Notes under the pieces: model-generated
Database searches by the model: none
Seen by the model: the letters and a program-made list of their open reading frames with translations, nothing else
Told to the model about the DNA's origin: nothing
Assembly: GCA_028353405.1 (NCBI GenBank)
Contig: JAOMOG010000016.1
Coordinates: forward strand, 1-36,603
From: Candidatus Poseidoniaceae archaeon
Lineage (GTDB): Archaea > Thermoplasmatota > Poseidoniia > Poseidoniales > Poseidoniaceae
DNA: 36,603 nt
Reading direction: 5' to 3'
Translations under genes and position numbers: made by a program
Part shown: positions 7,426-19,132 of the stretch, piece by piece
How the letters are laid out: every line of letters begins with the position of its first letter
Numbering within the stretch: the first letter of the stretch is position 1

Positions 7426-8568
7426 ATGGGTTTACTGGAAGTACAACATTTGGTTAAATACCCTCCATTTGAGGCACATAGATTAGTCGCATCAGAGTTG
7501 CCAATCTCAAAGAATAATGAAATCCTCGCAGATGATATTGACCTACAACAGGCTTTAGAAATTGTTTCAAAATCAATTCCAAGTTTCAAAATTGGAGAGA
7601 AATCAAGTTGGTTGATAGAGCGAAGATATTTGTTTGATGGAGATACAATCAAGCATGAAGTCTATGATTATGGTGTCGAGGACGATTCAGAGTGGCCAAT
7701 AATAGTAGAAAAACAACGTAGAGGGTGGTACTTAACTCCTCATCCAATACATGCAACTGCTAGAAGATTCATCAATAGAGTAGTTTATGTTCTACTGCTT
7801 TCACTTCTATATTTGTTCATCGAACCTTTACTTCATTCAATAGGAATTCCCGGAATCGGAACTGAAACTGTTCGTATAGGACTACTTGATTACCCGTTAC
7901 TGGCATTGGTAGTAGTACCGCTCTTTTTTATTCCTCTCGGATTACGTGTTGCAGCAAATTTCAGTGATTTACAAAAACAAAAACGATTCCTCTCCGATCG
8001 ACCCTTGATTCCAGAAATAGAAATTATCGGTGACGCAACCGCTGATAAAAACTTGAAATTAGAAGTTAAATTTGAGAAGATATATGATAATTGGAAATCA
8101 ATTTCTGTTTATTGGAGAGTAGGTGCACTACCCCCAGCTAGGGATGCCGTTTTTTCAGCTTTGAATCGTACAATTGAAGGTCAACCACCTCCCGGGTTAA
8201 CTACCAAACTACCACACCATTGGGAAGTGGGCTTGGATGATGGAACCGGGGCAGGAGAAGATTCTCCAATGCAACGACAAGGGGTGAGAGGTGGGCTATT
8301 TTTACGTCCTATGCGCGTTATGCAATCTGGTGGTAAAGTTGAGCACAGTGAGGGTGAAATCGTTCTGAATAATCCACAAAACTCATGGCCGGGAACCACG
8401 ATAACCCCTCTTGTGAGAATTCATTGGGAAATTATAGTTCAAATTGAAAGAGAAAATGAAGGTCCTTTATTGTGGGTCGAGCCACTTAGAGTGAAACATT
8501 CCTCCGAACATGTTGAGCAGAAGACTTTGATGGTCAATGACGGTAGAACTGAGTCCAATATTATTTGA
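7426..8568 (+). CDS. Unknown membrane protein, two transmembrane segments
   Basis: A 380-residue protein I do not recognise. An N-terminal soluble part (about 1-115) is followed by two strong hydrophobic segments (about 120-142, VVYVLLLSLLYLFIEPLLHSI, and about 152-175, YPLLALVVVPLFFIPLGLRV), then a soluble domain of about 200 residues rich in beta-strand pattern (WKSISVYWRVGALPP, TPLVRIHWEIIVQI). The two segments look like a hairpin that leaves both soluble parts on the same side. ATG 7426 is preceded by GAGGG, 8 nt before the start. It directly follows the geranylgeranyl-reductase-like gene, which hints at a membrane or lipid role, but no function can be assigned. Confidence 0.75.
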   Translation: MGLLEVQHLVKYPPFEAHRLVASELPISKNNEILADDIDLQQALEIVSKSIPSFKIGEKSSWLIERRYLFDGDTIKHEVYDYGVEDDSEWPIIVEKQRRGWYLTPHPIHATARRFINRVVYVLLLSLLYLFIEPLLHSIGIPGIGTETVRIGLLDYPLLALVVVPLFFIPLGLRVAANFSDLQKQKRFLSDRPLIPEIEIIGDATADKNLKLEVKFEKIYDNWKSISVYWRVGALPPARDAVFSALNRTIEGQPPPGLTTKLPHHWEVGLDDGTGAGEDSPMQRQGVRGGLFLRPMRVMQSGGKVEHSEGEIVLNNPQNSWPGTTITPLVRIHWEIIVQIERENEGPLLWVEPLRVKHSSEHVEQKTLMVNDGRTESNII

Positions 8569-8616: not shown

Positions 8617-11600
8617 ATGGGCAATCAGCGTAGTACTGCGGTGATTTTGATTTTCGTGATGTTGAGCGCTGGTTGTTTCGGCGCTGCAGATGATATCGCC
8701 GAGGAAGAGATAGTTCCTGCAGTCAATGAATTGAGTCTCAGTGTACTGTTTATTGAAGCGCAATCGAGTGCATTATTAGGTGAGATTGTGAGTCTTGAAA
8801 TTTCAGTTCAAAGTCAAGGGGAAGGGGATTGGCTCGCTACAGTTTTAATTTATCCAGAAGTTGAATTTGCTATGACACAATCTGATGATAGCGTAAATAT
8901 TATTTTCATACCAAACGAAATTGTTAGTTACAGTATTGCGGCGACATTTGAGGCAGCTAATGCAGAAACAATAATTATTGATAGTCCAGTAATTGCAACG
9001 CATGAAATATTGGTTTCACCTCCTGTTGAAGGTGCACCAATTTTGAATTCTCCACCTCTATTATCGCTAGAAGATTTTGGATTAATATGGGTCTCAGGCT
9101 CGATTACACACGATTACATAGATAGTTGTTCTTTGAGTTACTCGAGTGAGGGAGATCAAGGTCAAGTCGATGTAAAATCTGATGGAACTTGGAAAATGCT
9201 CACTGAGTTATATGATGGCGTGGCAGAAGTAACAATCACACTTGTCGCAACTTGTGGAGAATGGACAGTACTTAGTGATACATCAACGACAACTATCATT
9301 GTTGAAAATGCAGGAACTGATGCTGATGGTGATGGAATCCTGGATGAGAATGATAACTGTCCTAATGGTATTGGAGAAGCCGAGGGTTGGATTTCTTCTA
9401 CTACAGACGATATCGATTCTGATGGTTGCAGGGACCGTGATGAGGATGACGATGACGATGGTGATGGGATTGAAGATGTCAATGATAATTGCCCTAATTC
9501 TGTCGGTTGGATAAGTACCTTAGATGCAGATTATGATCAAGATGGATGCCATGATGAATCTTTTGATTTGGATGATGATGGTGATGGCGTTAACGACTTA
9601 GATGATTCCTGTCCGATGGGACTAACTGGATGGACTTCTAATCTATACAGTGATTGGGATGGCGATGGATGTTCTGATTTAGATGAAGATGATGATGATG
9701 ATAACGACCAAAGAAATGATACTATTGATTCATGTTCTAAGGGATTAACTTCTTGGATTCGAGATGAATTGAATGATTTTGATAATGACGGATGCTACGA
9801 TAGTTCCGAGGATGATGATGATGATAATGATGGAATAAGTGACTATAATGCAACTGGTGCAATATTAGATCTTTGCCCACGTACTCCATTATCTGGCATT
9901 GATGTTGACGAAGATGGTTGTGCATCAATTGAGAGAGATAGCGATTCCGATGGAGTTCACGATTTCTATGATATGTGCGAGGGGACTCCAGCCAACATTG
10001 TAGTAAACGCAGTTGGATGTGCCGATATCGATGATGATGGTATATTTTCAAATGTCGATATTTGTCCTGATACGCCTCAGCGTTGGACTGCAAATAGTTC
10101 TGGATGCGCAGTTATTCAACAACCTATTGCTTGGACTTCAGCAACAACATTGAATGGTCCAATGCAAGAAGTGCCACATTTCAGTATCCCCACTTTGGAT
10201 GGAACATTCTATTTTGAACAGGTTTGGAGTGGAGAAGATGTTTACTTATTTATGTTCAAATATACAAATAGTGATGGAAGCTCTAATTCTGCCACATGGG
10301 GTCAAAACCCTGGGAAATTAATTCGCGCTCTTCCAGATAATACACACTTGTTCTTCGGCTCATTTGATTCAACTTATCACAATGATGTTACTCAGCGGAA
10401 ATCGGCTGTAATTGCAGCACTAAACCCTTCAGAGGAAACAAAATGGCAAGATAGAATCCACTATATTGACCAACGTGCAAGCAGTATAGGTGGAGGATTA
10501 GGTCAAATGATTAATTCATTCAACAATCCAGCATACATGGGAATTGACCGATTCCAACTTTCTCGCGAAGTCGGTTCATTCTATGATTGGCCAACCCAAG
10601 CAAATGACCCAAGCCATATCGCATTTGAACCAGTTCAGTGGAATGTTGAATTCCCAACAAAGGTGAGAGAATTAGACCCAGCTGTCGAAGTTGTAACAAT
10701 TATGGATTTCCAAAATCATGCTGGTGGCTGGAGTGGCGGATTCAGTAGTTTTTCAAATGCTACATTTGACTTAACAAATAATATCAGTTCCTATGATACT
10801 CTCGAAGTATTTCATGAGCATGCTTGCCCTGATAGGGAAAATAGGCATAGCAACTCCGACGGTAGTTCAGGCGGCTGTCACGAATGGGATTATCTTGCAA
10901 ATCTGTATATTTGCAATGCTCAAAATAGTTCAGTGTGTAATACTGAAATTATGCGATGGATCACCACATATGGAAGAGAAGGTATGTGGCTAACCGATAT
11001 TTCACCATACTTGTTCATGATAGATGATGGAGAAGACCGGCGATTCAAATATGGTGGTGCCAATAAGGGTGATTTAACAGTAAAATTCCTCTTCAGTAAT
11101 TGGGGTAGTGGTGAGCGCTCGTATGAAGCTGATTACGCATTCTCTGGAGGACAATTCGATGGAACATATAATAACGAATCTAAGTACGATAGACAGATGA
11201 ATTTTACAGTACCATCGTGGGCAACTAAGGTATCATTGGTTGCTACAATTACAGGGCACGGTTTCAATAAAGATGCTGCTAATTGTGCAGAATTTTGTGA
11301 TCATGAACATCACTATTACATGAATGGAAGCCACACCTATGAATGGCATCCAGTTGCTCATAATCAAGCCAATGGATGCAAGGTTGAAATCGCCAATGGC
11401 GTTGTTGCAAATCAATATGGTTCTTGGCCATATGGTCGAGCTGGTTGGTGTGCTGGCCAGGATGTGAAACAGTGGACCTACGATATCACTTCATGGAGTA
11501 ACATGGATGGTGGAAATAATCATCTAACCTACAGAGGTTTGTACAATGGTCAAGAATATACTCCAAGCGAAAATATTGGAAATGGTCAACGTGAGATTAG

Positions 11601-11643
11601 AGCTGTAATCTATGTGGTCTATTCTGCTCCAACTATCAGTTGA
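8617..11643 (+). CDS. Secreted lipoprotein: calcium-binding TSP3-like repeats and PNGase F-like domain
   Basis: A 1008-residue surface lipoprotein. The N-terminus has a short signal peptide ending in the lipobox LSAG-C20 (VILIFVMLSAGC). Residues about 235-500 are tandem Asp-rich thrombospondin type 3-like repeats of the form DxDxDGxxDxxDxCP. Residues about 690-1008 resemble peptide-N-glycosidase F, the enzyme that releases N-glycans by cleaving the Asn-glycan amide bond. Matches include CHEWDYLANLYICN (D758 aligns with PNGase F catalytic Asp60), CAEFC (E892 aligns with Glu206), and GC...SWPYGRAGWCAGQ with the family disulfide Cys. The position of Glu118 appears to be Ser827. The region between (about 505-690) is unassigned. 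ATG 8617 gives a proper signal peptide; a TTG at 8587 is in frame. Its stop abuts the stop of the convergent mqnC. Confidence 0.85.
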   Translation: MGNQRSTAVILIFVMLSAGCFGAADDIAEEEIVPAVNELSLSVLFIEAQSSALLGEIVSLEISVQSQGEGDWLATVLIYPEVEFAMTQSDDSVNIIFIPNEIVSYSIAATFEAANAETIIIDSPVIATHEILVSPPVEGAPILNSPPLLSLEDFGLIWVSGSITHDYIDSCSLSYSSEGDQGQVDVKSDGTWKMLTELYDGVAEVTITLVATCGEWTVLSDTSTTTIIVENAGTDADGDGILDENDNCPNGIGEAEGWISSTTDDIDSDGCRDRDEDDDDDGDGIEDVNDNCPNSVGWISTLDADYDQDGCHDESFDLDDDGDGVNDLDDSCPMGLTGWTSNLYSDWDGDGCSDLDEDDDDDNDQRNDTIDSCSKGLTSWIRDELNDFDNDGCYDSSEDDDDDNDGISDYNATGAILDLCPRTPLSGIDVDEDGCASIERDSDSDGVHDFYDMCEGTPANIVVNAVGCADIDDDGIFSNVDICPDTPQRWTANSSGCAVIQQPIAWTSATTLNGPMQEVPHFSIPTLDGTFYFEQVWSGEDVYLFMFKYTNSDGSSNSATWGQNPGKLIRALPDNTHLFFGSFDSTYHNDVTQRKSAVIAALNPSEETKWQDRIHYIDQRASSIGGGLGQMINSFNNPAYMGIDRFQLSREVGSFYDWPTQANDPSHIAFEPVQWNVEFPTKVRELDPAVEVVTIMDFQNHAGGWSGGFSSFSNATFDLTNNISSYDTLEVFHEHACPDRENRHSNSDGSSGGCHEWDYLANLYICNAQNSSVCNTEIMRWITTYGREGMWLTDISPYLFMIDDGEDRRFKYGGANKGDLTVKFLFSNWGSGERSYEADYAFSGGQFDGTYNNESKYDRQMNFTVPSWATKVSLVATITGHGFNKDAANCAEFCDHEHHYYMNGSHTYEWHPVAHNQANGCKVEIANGVVANQYGSWPYGRAGWCAGQDVKQWTYDITSWSNMDGGNNHLTYRGLYNGQEYTPSENIGNGQREIRAVIYVVYSAPTIS
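9316..10110 (+). repeat. Asp-rich calcium-binding repeat region (TSP3-like)
   Basis: Degenerate tandem coding repeats based on GAT-rich codons encode repeated DxDxDGxxD loops with spaced Cys and 'D.CP' ends. At least six units are recognisable. Spacing varies between about 35 and 50 residues per unit, so this is a protein repeat, not a simple satellite. The loops are expected to bind Ca2+ and stiffen a stalk. Confidence 0.8.
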
Positions 11644-12834
11644 TTACTGAATAGGAGTAGGTGCTTTCATAGAGGATACTTCTGCTGTTAGTATAGAAGT
11701 TGGAAGTAGATTGTAGTCAGAATCCCTTCTCATGGGCTTGAATCCTGCCCTAAAGATTACATCTTGTAATTCTTCTTCACTTGCGCTTAGTTTTGTAGTA
11801 CCTGATGCAGAAACAACGTTTTCTTCCATCATGGTAGAGCCAACATCGTTAGCACCACCAAGTAATGCCATTTGAGCGACTGCAACACCCATTGTTGGCC
11901 ATGATGATTGAATGTTTTCAATATTATCAAGGAACAGACGAGATACCGCTACATGGCGAAGATATTCACTTGAACCTGCACCTAATTCGAATTTGTTTTG
12001 CCCTTTATTGCGCCTTCCAAAACTGTTTACTTCAAGTTGAACTGGCCAAGCGATAAATGATGTAAATCCTATCTTGTATTGTTGTAAAGATTGGTCCTGT
12101 AATTCTCTTAGTCTAAGCATGTGTTCGACCCTCTCGATCGCACCTTCACCGAAACCAAACACATTCGTAGCACTAGTAGTTAATCCAAGAGATTGTGCCT
12201 CTTGCATAACTCTAAGCCAATTCTTCGGAAGGCCTTTTTTGGGAGAAACATCATTCCTAACCGACTCAACTAGCATTTCTGCTCCACCACCAGGAAGACC
12301 ATGCATTCCAACAGATTGGAATTTTTTGAGAACTTCAAGGGTCGTCAAACCACTAACTTCTGCAATGCCTTCAATTTCAATAGGTGAAAAACAATCTAGG
12401 TCAATAGTTGGGTGATTTATTACTAGTGAAGAAATTAAATCTTGATACCATTTTATCGGCAACTCAGGATTTACTCCCCCTTGCATCAAAATTCTACTTC
12501 CACCAATTTCTTCCAATTCCACTATCCTTGCGCTAATCTCTTCAAACGTTTGAGTATATGTCTCCGGATGGTTTGGAGGGCGGTAAAAAGAGCAGAATTG
12601 ACAATTAATTGTACAGACATTTGTATAATTTATATTTCTGTCAATTAGATAAGTTACATTTCCTTCAGGGTGCATAGATTTTCTTCTAGCCATTGCCGCT
12701 GCCATTAATTGATGCAATGGAGCGTTGTCATACAACTCAATTGCCTGTTCAGGAGACAATCTATATTCAGAACTATTCGTTTTTGACCAATCGGCCTGTT
12801 GCTTTAATATCTGAATCCAATCCAATCGGAACAC
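11644..12834 (-). CDS. mqnC: Radical SAM cyclase of the futalosine menaquinone pathway (MqnC-like)
   Basis: A 396-residue radical SAM enzyme that best fits MqnC, which cyclises dehypoxanthine futalosine to the cyclic product in menaquinone synthesis. The [4Fe-4S]-SAM motif C-TIN-C-QF-C (Cx3Cx2C) lies in VTYLIDRNINYTNVCTINC, and 'RNINYTNVC..C.FC.FYR' is the MqnC wording. Next come MQGGVNPELPIKWYQDL, FSPIEIEGIAEVSGL and LPGGGAEMLVE, all as in MqnC; then FGFGEG.IE..EH and the FTSFIAWPVQLE segment. CofH (F420 synthesis) and MqnE are the nearest alternatives but differ in these motifs. The GTG start follows the TAG of pepP directly (TAGGTG), so it is the last gene of a tight four-gene minus-strand run. 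The stop abuts the convergent lipoprotein gene. Confidence 0.78.
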   Translation of the reverse strand: MFRLDWIQILKQQADWSKTNSSEYRLSPEQAIELYDNAPLHQLMAAAMARRKSMHPEGNVTYLIDRNINYTNVCTINCQFCSFYRPPNHPETYTQTFEEISARIVELEEIGGSRILMQGGVNPELPIKWYQDLISSLVINHPTIDLDCFSPIEIEGIAEVSGLTTLEVLKKFQSVGMHGLPGGGAEMLVESVRNDVSPKKGLPKNWLRVMQEAQSLGLTTSATNVFGFGEGAIERVEHMLRLRELQDQSLQQYKIGFTSFIAWPVQLEVNSFGRRNKGQNKFELGAGSSEYLRHVAVSRLFLDNIENIQSSWPTMGVAVAQMALLGGANDVGSTMMEENVVSASGTTKLSASEEELQDVIFRAGFKPMRRDSDYNLLPTSILTAEVSSMKAPTPIQ

Positions 12835-15868: not shown

Positions 15869-18800
15869 TTATTCATCAAACGGATTACACAACTCACCCT
15901 GACCAGGATATGATAATGGGTTTCGTGGATTTGTATCCCACTTGTATTCACAGAAGTTTACATGGCCATCGCCGTCAGTGTCCACCATTCTATCTGCAGC
16001 ATCGTCAGGATCAAACTTGAAATGGTATTCCCATCCAGTTGCCATACCATCATTATCGTGGTCTTGGTAGTAAACCTCAGGTCCATCATTCCACTCATCA
16101 CCGTCTGTATCATTTGAAACAGGGTTAGTCATGTTCTGCATTTCTTCAAGGTTGGTATAATTCTCCAAGTTATCATAGAATTTCTTTCCATCCGGAGTTT
16201 CAGGGTCAATATGACAATCGGAGTTAGTAGTATCATTGTAACCAGGACAATATTTCTTAATCAATCCTGAACGATTCAAACCGTCTCGATCAGGGTCTTC
16301 TTCACCATCCCATGTGCCATCTAAGTCACTATCTGGCATAGAAGGGTCCATCACACCACGAGCACCGTAAACGCTGGTCGTTGAATTATCGGTTAGTCCA
16401 AGTTCAAGAGCGACTTCAGAGTAATGCACTTCCCACCCATCTGGAAGACCATCTCCATCAGTATCATCGTCAACAGGATTTGTATTCCACCTGTCTGGTG
16501 CCTCAGCACTATTAGGTAAAGTGTCATTATCTACATCGAAAGTATCATCTTTCAATGAATCTAATGATGGATCTAGTGCCCATCTACCTGAACAACCATC
16601 ACAATTGGAATTAGATGGCATCGAGAATCCGGTTAGATTCATTTCAGATACTTCGTACTTAGCTGTTTGAACGAATCCTCCAAGCCAATTTTGCCAAACA
16701 TATCCACCAGCACTCATAGAACAATCATCATTTTGGCTAGGTGTACAACTTGGTCTCTGCCAAGATGATGTTGCAACCCATAGTGAATGGGAATTAGTAT
16801 TCTCTTCCGTTGATTTAACTTGCATTTCCCAACCATCAAGCATTCCATCAGAATCTGTATCATTAATCAGTGGGTTTGTTGGATTCTGGAATGGCCTTGG
16901 AACAAATAATACCTCATGTCCGTCGATTAGGCCATCTGCGTCAGTATCCGAATTGTTTGCGTGAGTCAAGAAGTTATCAGCACCTGCAATGACTTCTTCT
17001 CCATCTTCAAGACCGTCATTATCTGTGTCAAACATACATGGGCTTGTAAAATATGATTCACCTTCCCAAGAGAAACCAGCTAATGATTCTGATTGATCTC
17101 CTAATCCATCACCATCAGTATCAGGGTTAGAGGCGTTCGAACCTTGGTTACAAATTGTTGCAAACTCGTCATAGTCGCTCAATCCATCTGCATCTGTATC
17201 ATACAAACCAGGGTCAGAAGTAACCCAAGTTCTTTGGACACCATTATTGACAACAAGAATTTCCCAACCCATTACTTCTATTCCATCAATTAAACCATCA
17301 CCATCAGTATCCGCATTCAACGGGTTTGTAGAGCGTCCATCAATAATGCCATCTCCATCCCTATCTCTAGCATTATATTCCATAAGATTAGTGAATTGTT
17401 CTTCTGGTTCTACGATTTCAAGCCAGACATCTAGTCTTGATTCAATAGTTTGTCCCAAAACAACATGAATTTCATAGACATAACCATCAACTGGTGCTGT
17501 AAGAGGAATTGTTTGTTTATTTCCACCACCAAGAGTAATTTGAGCACGTGCGACTGTTTGGTTCGCGACTACCCATTGGTCTTCTTGTACATCAATTCCA
17601 ACAACTACTGCTGTAAGTTCCAATGTGTCATAACGTACTGCTCCATCTCCGTCAGCATCCCAGCCATCATGGTCTGGGTCAAGATCACCGTTAGAACCAT
17701 CTCTAGGATGAAGTCCATTAGATGACTCCCAGCCATCAGGCATTCCGTCAAGATCTGTATCAAGTCTCCAAGGAGATGTGAAATTTGTTGGTCCAAAAAT
17801 AAGTGCAACCTCATATTCCTCAAGGTTATTCATTCCATCTTCGTCCCAGTCACCATACCCATCAGAGGCATTGGAAGGGTCAAGTGTTAGAAAATCATTC
17901 ATTTGAGGAGCTTCTAATTGATGAGAATAGCAATACTCGAATCCATCAGGCATTCCATCTCCATCAGTATCCCAATCCGAAGGACCGTTGTTTTTTCCGT
18001 CATTATCCATGTCTTGTAAGAACCATGCTTTTTCCATTCCCATGAATGGTGCTGCTCTGTTAATCGATTCTAACAGTGGGACATTACAATCCTCACCAGA
18101 TCCAACGAATAAGGAAACTGATGTATTAGAAACTTCAACGATATCGTCTATAAGATCCATATCTGAATCTCTTGAAGTTGGATTTGTCCCAAATTGTTCT
18201 TCCTCGAAATTTGCTAGACCATCATCATCTGTGTCAAGGACCATATCACAGGAATGGATTCCTGCAGGGTTTGCTAAATCATCCCAATTAGCATTACCAT
18301 TTTCTCCATCAAATCTCTCTGAGAGGGCATCTGTCATAGCTTGGTCTAAAAGTAGACAATCCCAGTTCCCAGATAATGGGTCGAATAAATCCACAGTTCC
18401 ACCAGGGGTTTGAACTGTTGTAGTGTAAAGTGATTCCCAACGGTCACCAAGTCCATCATTGTCTGAATCAGACCTTTGTGGGTCTGTTCCTAAATCTGCT
18501 TCCTCTTGATTAGTCAAGCCATCTCCATCTGGGTCACCGGTTGGACCTTGATTTGGATCTGGCCAAGATTCTGTTTCGTTCTTTTCAGATGCATCTTCGG
18601 TATCCGCTTGGCCTGGTTCTGTTTCCAAGTCCTCAGATTCACCATTATCTAGCGGATTTAGGCCGTGTTCTACTTCCCAACCGTCACTCATTCCATCATT
18701 ATCTGTATCCGGATTGTCTGGATCAGTACCGTATTGAGTCTCTTCTAGATTATCCGCAAGTCCATCCCCATCACTATCCATAGCAGTTGAACTAGTCGTG

Positions 18801-18952
18801 CCTTTGCCATACAAATCATCTTCTACTGCACTATCGTATTGACCGATAGATTCACTGGTTTGATAGTATCCAGAGGCGCCAACAAAAAGGGAACCAAAAA
18901 TTAGAGTCGAAACGATTGCTACATAGGCCATTTGGTTGTGAGTTAGGGACAT
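15869..18952 (-). CDS. Large secreted surface protein with many calcium-binding TSP3-like repeats
   Basis: A 1027-residue exported protein composed mostly of Asp-rich repeats. The N-terminal signal segment is MAYVAIVSTLIFGSLFVGASG. From about residue 58 to the end, units of the type DTDxDGLxDGxEExxGTDPxxxDTD recur more than ten times, the TSP3/calcium-binding architecture common in marine archaeal and bacterial surface proteins. Two non-repeat insertions are visible, one at about residues 450-500 (beta-rich) and one in the region of ENTNSHSLWVATSSWQRP. The C-terminus ends in a repeat with no membrane anchor or sorting motif I recognise. ATG 18952 is chosen because AAGGTG lies 6 nt upstream; ATG 18970 is also in frame. 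It heads a four-gene minus-strand run with the membrane-anchored protein, pepP and mqnC. Confidence 0.85.
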   Translation of the reverse strand: MSLTHNQMAYVAIVSTLIFGSLFVGASGYYQTSESIGQYDSAVEDDLYGKGTTSSTAMDSDGDGLADNLEETQYGTDPDNPDTDNDGMSDGWEVEHGLNPLDNGESEDLETEPGQADTEDASEKNETESWPDPNQGPTGDPDGDGLTNQEEADLGTDPQRSDSDNDGLGDRWESLYTTTVQTPGGTVDLFDPLSGNWDCLLLDQAMTDALSERFDGENGNANWDDLANPAGIHSCDMVLDTDDDGLANFEEEQFGTNPTSRDSDMDLIDDIVEVSNTSVSLFVGSGEDCNVPLLESINRAAPFMGMEKAWFLQDMDNDGKNNGPSDWDTDGDGMPDGFEYCYSHQLEAPQMNDFLTLDPSNASDGYGDWDEDGMNNLEEYEVALIFGPTNFTSPWRLDTDLDGMPDGWESSNGLHPRDGSNGDLDPDHDGWDADGDGAVRYDTLELTAVVVGIDVQEDQWVVANQTVARAQITLGGGNKQTIPLTAPVDGYVYEIHVVLGQTIESRLDVWLEIVEPEEQFTNLMEYNARDRDGDGIIDGRSTNPLNADTDGDGLIDGIEVMGWEILVVNNGVQRTWVTSDPGLYDTDADGLSDYDEFATICNQGSNASNPDTDGDGLGDQSESLAGFSWEGESYFTSPCMFDTDNDGLEDGEEVIAGADNFLTHANNSDTDADGLIDGHEVLFVPRPFQNPTNPLINDTDSDGMLDGWEMQVKSTEENTNSHSLWVATSSWQRPSCTPSQNDDCSMSAGGYVWQNWLGGFVQTAKYEVSEMNLTGFSMPSNSNCDGCSGRWALDPSLDSLKDDTFDVDNDTLPNSAEAPDRWNTNPVDDDTDGDGLPDGWEVHYSEVALELGLTDNSTTSVYGARGVMDPSMPDSDLDGTWDGEEDPDRDGLNRSGLIKKYCPGYNDTTNSDCHIDPETPDGKKFYDNLENYTNLEEMQNMTNPVSNDTDGDEWNDGPEVYYQDHDNDGMATGWEYHFKFDPDDAADRMVDTDGDGHVNFCEYKWDTNPRNPLSYPGQGELCNPFDE
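15960..18779 (-). repeat. Tandem Asp-rich calcium-binding coding repeats
   Basis: The gene body consists of degenerate tandem units encoding DxDxDGxxD(G)xE loops, seen on the plus strand as recurring ccatcaccatcagtatc-like blocks. Unit length varies, and two unique insertions interrupt the array. It is a protein repeat array, not a CRISPR or satellite. Confidence 0.8.
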
Positions 18953-19132
18953 TAGAAACACCTTGCACATACGTACAAAATCCCCGACTCTATGTATCGG
19001 TTATAGTCCTTAACTATGGATGGGCATAAAAATACTCATAGAGAACTAGATTTTAGTGAAGAAAATTTTAATATTTTATAATCAAATATGCCTAAAAAAA
19101 GCAATAAATACCACTATTTGGACGAAATATGA
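18953..19132. other. Intergenic region upstream of the large surface-protein run
   Basis: 180 AT-rich bases between two minus-strand genes. It probably contains the promoter of the surface-protein operon; I see no tRNA and no clear terminator. Confidence 0.4.

What the first reader, a model, noticed from the sequence alone, without database searches (positions are those of the whole stretch)
8617..11643. PNGase F-like domain on an archaeal calcium-repeat lipoprotein
The C-terminal region (about 690-1008) matches the PNGase F fold motifs, including the positions of catalytic Asp60 and Glu206 and the disulfide Cys patterns (CAEFC, GC...GWC). It is fused behind a lipobox and a TSP3-like stalk. 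A surface deglycosylase would let a planktonic archaeon attack glycoproteins, or trim its own N-glycoproteins, which archaea make in abundance.
Basis: partly seen in the sequence, partly recalled or inferred. Interest (0 to 1): 0.75.

Follow-up and report, generated by a model that had tools for sequence, protein, structure and literature searches.

The report
Archaeal surface sugar-chain-removing enzyme (N-glycanase)
Abundant, uncultured ocean-surface archaea carry a membrane-anchored protein on a calcium-binding stalk whose head is almost certainly an enzyme that cuts sugar chains off proteins, and its closest relative of known structure is not the familiar bacterial laboratory enzyme PNGase F but a fish-egg enzyme described in 2025.

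Summary
Window 8617-11643 (+) encodes a 1008-aa lipoprotein: lipobox Cys20, two beta-sandwich domains, twelve DxDxD(G) calcium-type repeats and a C-terminal PNGase F-like domain. PF09113 scores 80.9 bits against a cut-off of 25. AlphaFold (pLDDT 88, pTM 0.86) matches PNGase F structures. D758 and E892 align with D60/E206 and are invariant in 45 homologues.

The shared similarity includes a redox-dead thioredoxin-like domain at 515-660. The archaeal protein lacks the PA domain that lids the Ngly2 active site. It shares His881 with Ngly2 (Trp191 in PNGase F) but not Ngly2's His422 (here Tyr759).

The gene is widespread in class Poseidoniia, monophyletic, under strong purifying selection (dN/dS 0.01-0.03 in the PNGase domain) and at a fixed site. 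Eight genomes lack it cleanly while keeping AglB.

Best reading: a cell-surface peptide:N-glycanase that strips foreign N-glycoproteins before proteolysis. Fold and catalytic residues are shown; activity and substrate are inferred. It is a new archaeal variant of a known enzyme kind; I found no earlier description in the papers searched.

The parts
8617..11643 (+). Whole gene: 1008-aa lipoprotein with TSP3-like stalk and C-terminal N-glycanase
   Evidence: orthologues in 53/100 relatives
8617..8676 (+). Signal peptide and lipobox LSAGC; lipidated Cys20
   Evidence: sequence; a lipobox is visible in 19 of 20 orthologue N-termini printed (the 20th is cut before that point)
8722..9306 (+). Two N-terminal beta-sandwich (Ig-like) domains, residues about 36-230
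   Evidence: full-length AlphaFold model, pLDDT mostly 80-91 there; fastest-evolving part, dN/dS 0.14-0.21
9319..10116 (+). TSP3-like calcium-type stalk, residues 235-500: 12 DxDxD(G) motifs, regularly spaced Cys
   Evidence: Asp/Cys pattern nearly invariant in 21 full-length orthologues; TSP_3 E 0.0028, below Pfam cut-off
10159..10596 (+). Thioredoxin/peroxiredoxin-like domain, residues about 515-660, without any Cys (redox-dead) and without the PA insertion of Ngly2
   Evidence: matches Ngly2 Tx-like domain, i-E 2.1e-5; Foldseek to Bcp1 peroxiredoxin 3drn 4.3e-4; no Cys in 500-672
10609..10674 (+). Linker helix (residues 665-686) between thioredoxin-like and PNGase domains, as in Ngly2
   Evidence: AlphaFold model H166-187 of the fragment; linker helix described for Ngly2 (PMC12753239)
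10675..11640 (+). PNGase F-like double jelly-roll catalytic domain, residues about 687-1008
   Evidence: PF09113 9.8e-23; 9lwg and 1pnf matches; structure
10888..10890 (+). Asp758, equivalent of PNGase F D60 / Ngly2 D421 (catalytic)
   Evidence: alignment; invariant 45/45
11257..11259 (+). His881, equivalent of Ngly2 H546, at the PNGase F Trp191 position
   Evidence: invariant 45/45
11290..11292 (+). Glu892, equivalent of PNGase F E206 / Ngly2 E555 (catalytic)
   Evidence: invariant 45/45
7426..8568 (+). Context: upstream flank of the conserved locus, 380-aa predicted membrane protein, no family; abuts CofH in genomes without the PNGase gene
11644..12834 (-). Context: downstream flank of the conserved locus, CofH/MqnC-like radical SAM protein, convergent

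Best explanation
It is a surface-anchored peptide:N-glycanase. The lipid on Cys20 holds it to the outer face of the archaeal membrane, and two Ig-like domains plus a calcium-stiffened TSP3-like stalk lift the catalytic head away from the cell. The head (a structural, redox-dead thioredoxin-like domain joined to a double jelly roll) hydrolyses the amide bond between asparagine and the first GlcNAc of N-glycoproteins, using D758 and E892. The Asn becomes Asp and the intact glycan is freed. Because the PA domain that covers the active site in animal Ngly2 is absent, the site should be open, as in PNGase F, and able to take folded glycoproteins. The likely targets are N-glycoproteins from phytoplankton and other plankton in organic matter; removing the sugar exposes the polypeptide to the cell's peptidases. 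Shown: gene, anchor motif, stalk repeats, predicted fold, catalytic residues, purifying selection, presence/absence at a fixed site. Inferred: catalytic activity, open active site, foreign substrate, feeding role.
For: Family and fold. Catalytic D/E invariant in 45/45 diverse homologues; the equivalent D421A/E555A mutations abolish Ngly2 activity (PMC12753239). dN/dS of the PNGase domain 0.012-0.031, lowest of all regions. Lipobox and stalk conserved in orthologues. PA domain absent here; among bacterial homologues it was seen only in L021. Eight genomes lack the gene cleanly at the same locus yet have AglB, so it is not needed for the cell's own N-glycosylation. No GH20 or GH92 in 40 relatives, which argues against feeding on the released glycan by that route. 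Published transcript evidence that Poseidoniales metabolise proteins (PMC9723583).
Against: No activity has been measured. E118 of PNGase F is not conserved (Phe810 region; also absent in active Ngly2). Trp191 is replaced by His and Arg61 by Tyr, so sugar contacts differ. Ngly2 Trp480, important for the inner glycan, is Tyr812 here. The cells have their own N-glycosylation, so an own-surface substrate is not excluded. Only two glycosidase families were checked.
Confidence: 0.68

Rival explanations
1. Own-surface role: the enzyme removes or recycles N-glycans from the archaeon's own AglB-modified surface proteins, for remodelling, release from particles or turnover.
For: AglB/STT3 found in 95/100 relatives; the enzyme is anchored on the cell's own surface (lipobox).
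Against: Eight genomes with AglB lack the gene cleanly at the conserved locus, including same-genus members. No Alg14 family protein in 31 relatives, so a chitobiose core is not evident; this is weak, because that model also misses the chitobiose maker Sulfolobus acidocaldarius.
Confidence: 0.17
2. A non-catalytic or adhesive protein: the domain binds N-glycans on particles or algae and works as an adhesin, with the fold kept and hydrolysis lost.
For: TSP3-type proteins are associated with adhesion in this group (PMC6461757); several sugar-contact residues differ from PNGase F.
Against: Both catalytic acids, Arg941 (PNGase F R248), Trp944 and all three Cys pairs are invariant in 45/45. Selection is strongest in the catalytic domain. 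Ngly2, with E118 and W191 also replaced, is active (PMC12753239).
Confidence: 0.1
3. An amidase for a different Asn-linked or amide-linked sugar, for example bacterial or archaeal glycans rather than the eukaryotic chitobiose core.
For: R61, W191 and E118 positions differ from PNGase F; close homologues lie in Myxococcota-type bacteria.
Against: Ngly2, which shares the His at the W191 position, cleaves ordinary GlcNAc2 glycans (PMC12753239).
Confidence: 0.1
4. Contamination or mis-binning of a bacterial contig.
For: Nearest non-archaeal relatives are Myxococcota-type bacteria.
Against: Same gene order across tens of Poseidoniales contigs from independent surveys, also in a single-contig genome (G056); archaeal sequences are monophyletic, 100/100 and 98/96.
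Confidence: 0.01

Closest known systems
Zebrafish Ngly2, acid peptide:N-glycanase (si:dkey-256h2.1; PDB 9lwg; Honda et al. 2025, PMC12753239)
   Same: Closest solved relative by sequence (8.6e-49) and structure (TM 0.78 on the query); thioredoxin-like domain without redox Cys, linker helix and double jelly roll; catalytic D/E; extra Cys pair 766/774; His at the PNGase F Trp191 position.
   Different: No PA domain inserted; Tyr759 instead of H422; Tyr812 instead of W480; lipoprotein on a TSP3-like stalk rather than a lysosomal soluble dimer; archaeal.
PNGase F, Elizabethkingia meningoseptica (1pgs, 1pnf, 3pms)
   Same: Double jelly roll, D60/E206, three disulfide Cys pairs, R248, W59; PF09113.
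   Different: No thioredoxin-like domain; soluble; E118, R61 and W191 not kept in the archaeal protein; only 8e-10 by sequence.
Thioredoxin-like/PNGase lipoproteins of Myxococcota-type bacteria (L022-L028, L031, L032, L039 and others; unnamed)
   Same: Same thioredoxin-like plus PNGase module, mostly no PA, N-terminal lipobox in several; one group is sister of the archaeal clade (91/95, 93/95).
   Different: About 550-750 aa, no long TSP3 stalk in the cases inspected, 26-39% identity.
Anaerolineae L021 protein (911 aa)
   Same: Thioredoxin-like plus PNGase; catalytic residues.
   Different: Carries a PA domain (PF02225, 6.5e-14) and so has the animal Ngly2 architecture; groups with Ngly2 in the tree (long branches).
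PNGF-II and Bacteroides PNGase-like structures (4r4z, 7zgn, 3ks7, 4qhb)
   Same: Same double jelly-roll superfamily (Foldseek 1e-9 to 1e-11 range).
   Different: Other additional domains; 10-13% identity.

Membership tests
PNGase F superfamily (PF09112/PF09113) | PF09113 N-glycanase_C above curated cut-off | tested here: met
   80.9 bits against 25
PNGase F superfamily (PF09112/PF09113) | PF09112 N-glycanase_N detectable by sequence | tested here: not met
   no match at E 0.1 in the window protein; homologues give sub-threshold hits; the N-terminal jelly roll is supported by structure instead
PNGase F superfamily (PF09112/PF09113) | Double jelly-roll fold | tested here: met
   AlphaFold model pLDDT 88, Foldseek to 1pgs 1.8e-15, TM 0.71 on target; strands not counted individually
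PNGase F superfamily (PF09112/PF09113) | Catalytic D60 and E206 | tested here: met
   D758 and E892, invariant 45/45
PNGase F superfamily (PF09112/PF09113) | Third acidic residue E118 | tested here: not met
   alignment puts Phe810/Tyr812 in that region; also absent in active Ngly2, so not treated as defining
PNGase F superfamily (PF09112/PF09113) | Three disulfide Cys pairs | tested here: met
   737/754, 890/894, 921/945 invariant; bonding itself not tested
PNGase F superfamily (PF09112/PF09113) | Release of N-glycans with Asn-to-Asp conversion | not testable with these tools
   needs an assay
Ngly2 (animal acid PNGase) | Thioredoxin-like domain without redox Cys before the PNGase domain | tested here: met
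Ngly2 (animal acid PNGase) | PA domain inserted in the thioredoxin-like domain | tested here: not met
   no insertion between the Tx match (to about 635-650) and the GIDRFQ segment; no PF02225 hit
Ngly2 (animal acid PNGase) | Active-site His422 and His546 | tested here: inconclusive
   H546 kept as H881 (45/45); H422 is Tyr759
Ngly2 (animal acid PNGase) | Activity only at acidic pH | not testable with these tools
   needs an assay
TSP3-type calcium repeats | Tandem DxDxDG calcium motifs with spaced Cys | tested here: met
   12 motifs in 235-475, conserved in 21 orthologues
TSP3-type calcium repeats | Pfam TSP_3 above cut-off | tested here: not met
   17.7 bits against 25
Lipoprotein | Hydrophobic leader with lipobox Cys | tested here: met
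   LSAGC, Cys20; lipobox visible in 19 of 20 orthologue N-termini; lipidation itself not tested

The most novel reading that the evidence does not exclude
An archaeal deglycosylation cycle: the enzyme acts on the cell's own AglB-made surface glycans, shedding or remodelling its coat, which would be the first intrinsic N-glycan removal system in archaea and would imply chitobiose-like glycans in Poseidoniales.
Probability: 0.13. Interest if true: 0.8.

Novelty: new variant of a known kind. Interest (0 to 1): 0.5.

Why it matters
[quoted passage not shown] An anchored N-glycanase, kept under strong selection in most Poseidoniaceae and lost cleanly in others, gives a concrete and testable handle on how they reach glycosylated protein in marine organic matter. 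It also shows that the module of the animal acid PNGase (thioredoxin-like plus PNGase domain) is wider than the fish paper reported, occurring in archaea and several bacterial lineages, mostly without the PA lid. The archaeal and myxococcal versions are natural candidates for PNGases with different pH and substrate ranges.

Tried and rejected
Contamination was considered and rejected by synteny and tree. Incomplete assembly as the cause of absence in some genomes was rejected in eight of eight loci examined by finding the empty site. A redox function for the thioredoxin-like domain was rejected for lack of any Cys. The Alg14 search was uninformative, because its positive-control behaviour is poor. 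STT3 was not found in the window's own 66%-complete genome but is near universal in relatives, so the first result is put down to incompleteness. The full-length structure model is too weak (pTM 0.46) to say how head and stalk sit together; only its N-terminal sandwiches are usable. NCBIfam gave only weak hits far below cut-off. An attempt to sample Myxococcota through a handle returned one genome only. Literature searches found no description of archaeal PNGase F-like proteins in the held library; most subscription journals are not held.

Full report
THE GENE. Window 8617-11643 (+) is an intact ORF of 1008 aa. The organism is a marine planktonic archaeon of Candidatus Poseidoniaceae (Marine Group II). 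The same-genus genome G001, contig C57 (37609 bp), has the length of record JAPKFC010000010.1, 'Candidatus Poseidoniaceae archaeon isolate ANT-132' (L053), and its protein is 97% identical. The window's own genome is 1.38 Mb and 66% complete.

ANATOMY. Residues 1-20 are a leader ending in a lipobox, LSAGC; 19 of 20 orthologue N-termini printed show one, the 20th being cut short. Residues 36-230 are two beta-sandwich domains. Residues 235-475 hold twelve DxDxD(G)-type motifs with regularly spaced cysteines, almost invariant in 21 full-length orthologues. The Pfam TSP_3 model is below cut-off, so 'TSP3-like' is the right wording. Residues 515-660 are a thioredoxin-like domain without any cysteine. 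Residues 665-686 form a linker helix. Residues 687-1008 are the PNGase domain.

THE PNGASE DOMAIN. PF09113 matches with E 9.8e-23, 80.9 bits against a cut-off of 25. In the PDB, phmmer gives zebrafish Ngly2 (9lwg) 8.6e-49 and PNGase F about 8e-10. A 45-sequence profile gives Ngly2 1.5e-98 and PNGase F 5e-23. AlphaFold on residues 500-1008 with that alignment reached pLDDT 88.4 and pTM 0.86. Foldseek ranks Ngly2 first (2.8e-35, TM 0.78 on the query), then PNGase F (1.8e-15, TM 0.71 on the target), then PNGF-II and Bacteroides relatives. The thioredoxin-like part matches the Bcp1 peroxiredoxin 3drn. D758, E892, R941, W944, H881 and Cys 737/754/890/894/921/945 are invariant in all 45 sequences. 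D758 and E892 are the counterparts of Ngly2 D421 and E555, whose alanine mutants are inactive (PMC12753239). Differences from PNGase F: R61 to Tyr759, W191 to His881, and no E118. By the same alignment Ngly2 also lacks E118 and W191 and is active.

The protein belongs with Ngly2, not only with PNGase F. Ngly2 has a thioredoxin-like domain (58-185 plus 319-343) with a PA domain inserted at 186-318. The archaeal protein has the thioredoxin-like domain without the insertion, and the bacterial homologues read look the same except one. That one, from an Anaerolineae MAG (L021), has the PA domain (6.5e-14); it was the only one with it among the proteins scanned against Pfam. The Ngly2 authors connect its inactivity on a cyclic glycopeptide with the PA domain over the cleft; by inference the archaeal enzyme should have an open site like PNGase F.

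DISTRIBUTION AND HISTORY. PF09113 is found in 53 of 100 close relatives, one copy each. In a phylum sample it is in 51 of 293 genomes, all in three family codes of the window's class. I take these to be Poseidoniaceae (f1, supported by the L053 link), Thalassarchaeaceae (f2) and a Marine Group III lineage (f3); the last two names are inferences. Archaeal sequences form one clade (100/100; 98/96 with f3 included), with f3 outside f1 plus f2, as the species relations would have it. The nearest bacteria are Myxococcota-type lineages (91/95 and 93/95, not quite at the starred level). Ngly2 pairs with the Anaerolineae protein in both trees, but both are long branches and the join may be false. The gene sits between a 380-aa membrane protein gene and a convergent CofH-like gene across Poseidoniaceae and in most f2 carriers; f3 carries it elsewhere. 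In eight non-carriers from f1 and f2 the two flanking genes abut, 12-157 bp apart by match ends, so absence is real. One ancient acquisition in the class followed by several clean losses fits best. dN/dS against four close relatives is 0.012-0.031 in the PNGase domain, 0.034-0.070 in the stalk and 0.14-0.21 in the N-terminal sandwiches.

FUNCTION. Poseidoniales have their own N-glycosylation: AglB/STT3 in 95 of 100 relatives. All eight tested non-carriers have it too, so the enzyme is not a fixed partner of that pathway. GH20 and GH92, two common families for digesting N-glycans, were not found in 40 relatives, while published work shows high transcription of peptidases and likely protein metabolism in both families (PMC9723583). 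The best reading is therefore deglycosylation of foreign N-glycoproteins to open the polypeptide to peptidases, carried out at the cell surface on a stalk. Catalysis is predicted strongly; substrate and role are inferences. In the f2 family the carriers have larger genomes than the non-carriers (about 1.6-2.1 against 1.2-1.7 Mb), consistent with loss during streamlining.

NOVELTY. The fold, chemistry and domain pair are known. New here, as far as the held literature shows, are the archaeal occurrence, the surface anchor and TSP3-like stalk, the PA-free Ngly2-type architecture in archaea and bacteria, and the fixed-site presence/absence pattern. The Ngly2 paper mentions animals and bacteria, not archaea (one search finds no 'archaea' in its text).

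Noticed in passing
L121:15-9518 (and most AglB matches): The AglB/STT3 oligosaccharyltransferase of Poseidoniales lies in a giant open frame of about 3,100-3,300 aa in most genomes; in L121 (3168 aa) STT3 is at 404-802, a carboxypeptidase-regulatory-like domain at 2480-2537, and most of the rest matches no family.
   Followed up: partly
L021:3864-6596: An Anaerolineae MAG encodes a thioredoxin-like + PA + PNGase protein, the animal Ngly2 architecture, in a bacterium; it pairs with zebrafish Ngly2 in the trees (long branches).
   Followed up: partly
PMC12753239, section on the catalytic site: The Ngly2 paper pairs Trp420 with Trp191 and Trp59/Arg61 with His422/His546; the sequence alignment here instead pairs W420 with W59, H422 with R61 and H546 with W191.
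   Followed up: partly
L049: Record labelled uncultured Rhodobiaceae bacterium carries a Poseidoniaceae contig by gene order and tree; likely mislabelled or mis-binned.
   Followed up: partly
window 15872-18970 (-): A second large repeat protein (1033 aa, Bacterial TSP3 repeat PF18884, 1.6e-22), conserved next to this locus across Poseidoniaceae; the part covered by the loci is very conserved (about 72-84% identity).
   Followed up: no
window 7426-8568 (+): A 380-aa predicted membrane protein with no family match, beside the PNGase site in nearly all carriers and kept when the PNGase gene is absent.
   Followed up: partly
G100 and G101 (bacterial genomes of L042 and L024): Two PF09113 genes each, of different length, so paralogues exist in Myxococcota-type bacteria.
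   Followed up: no
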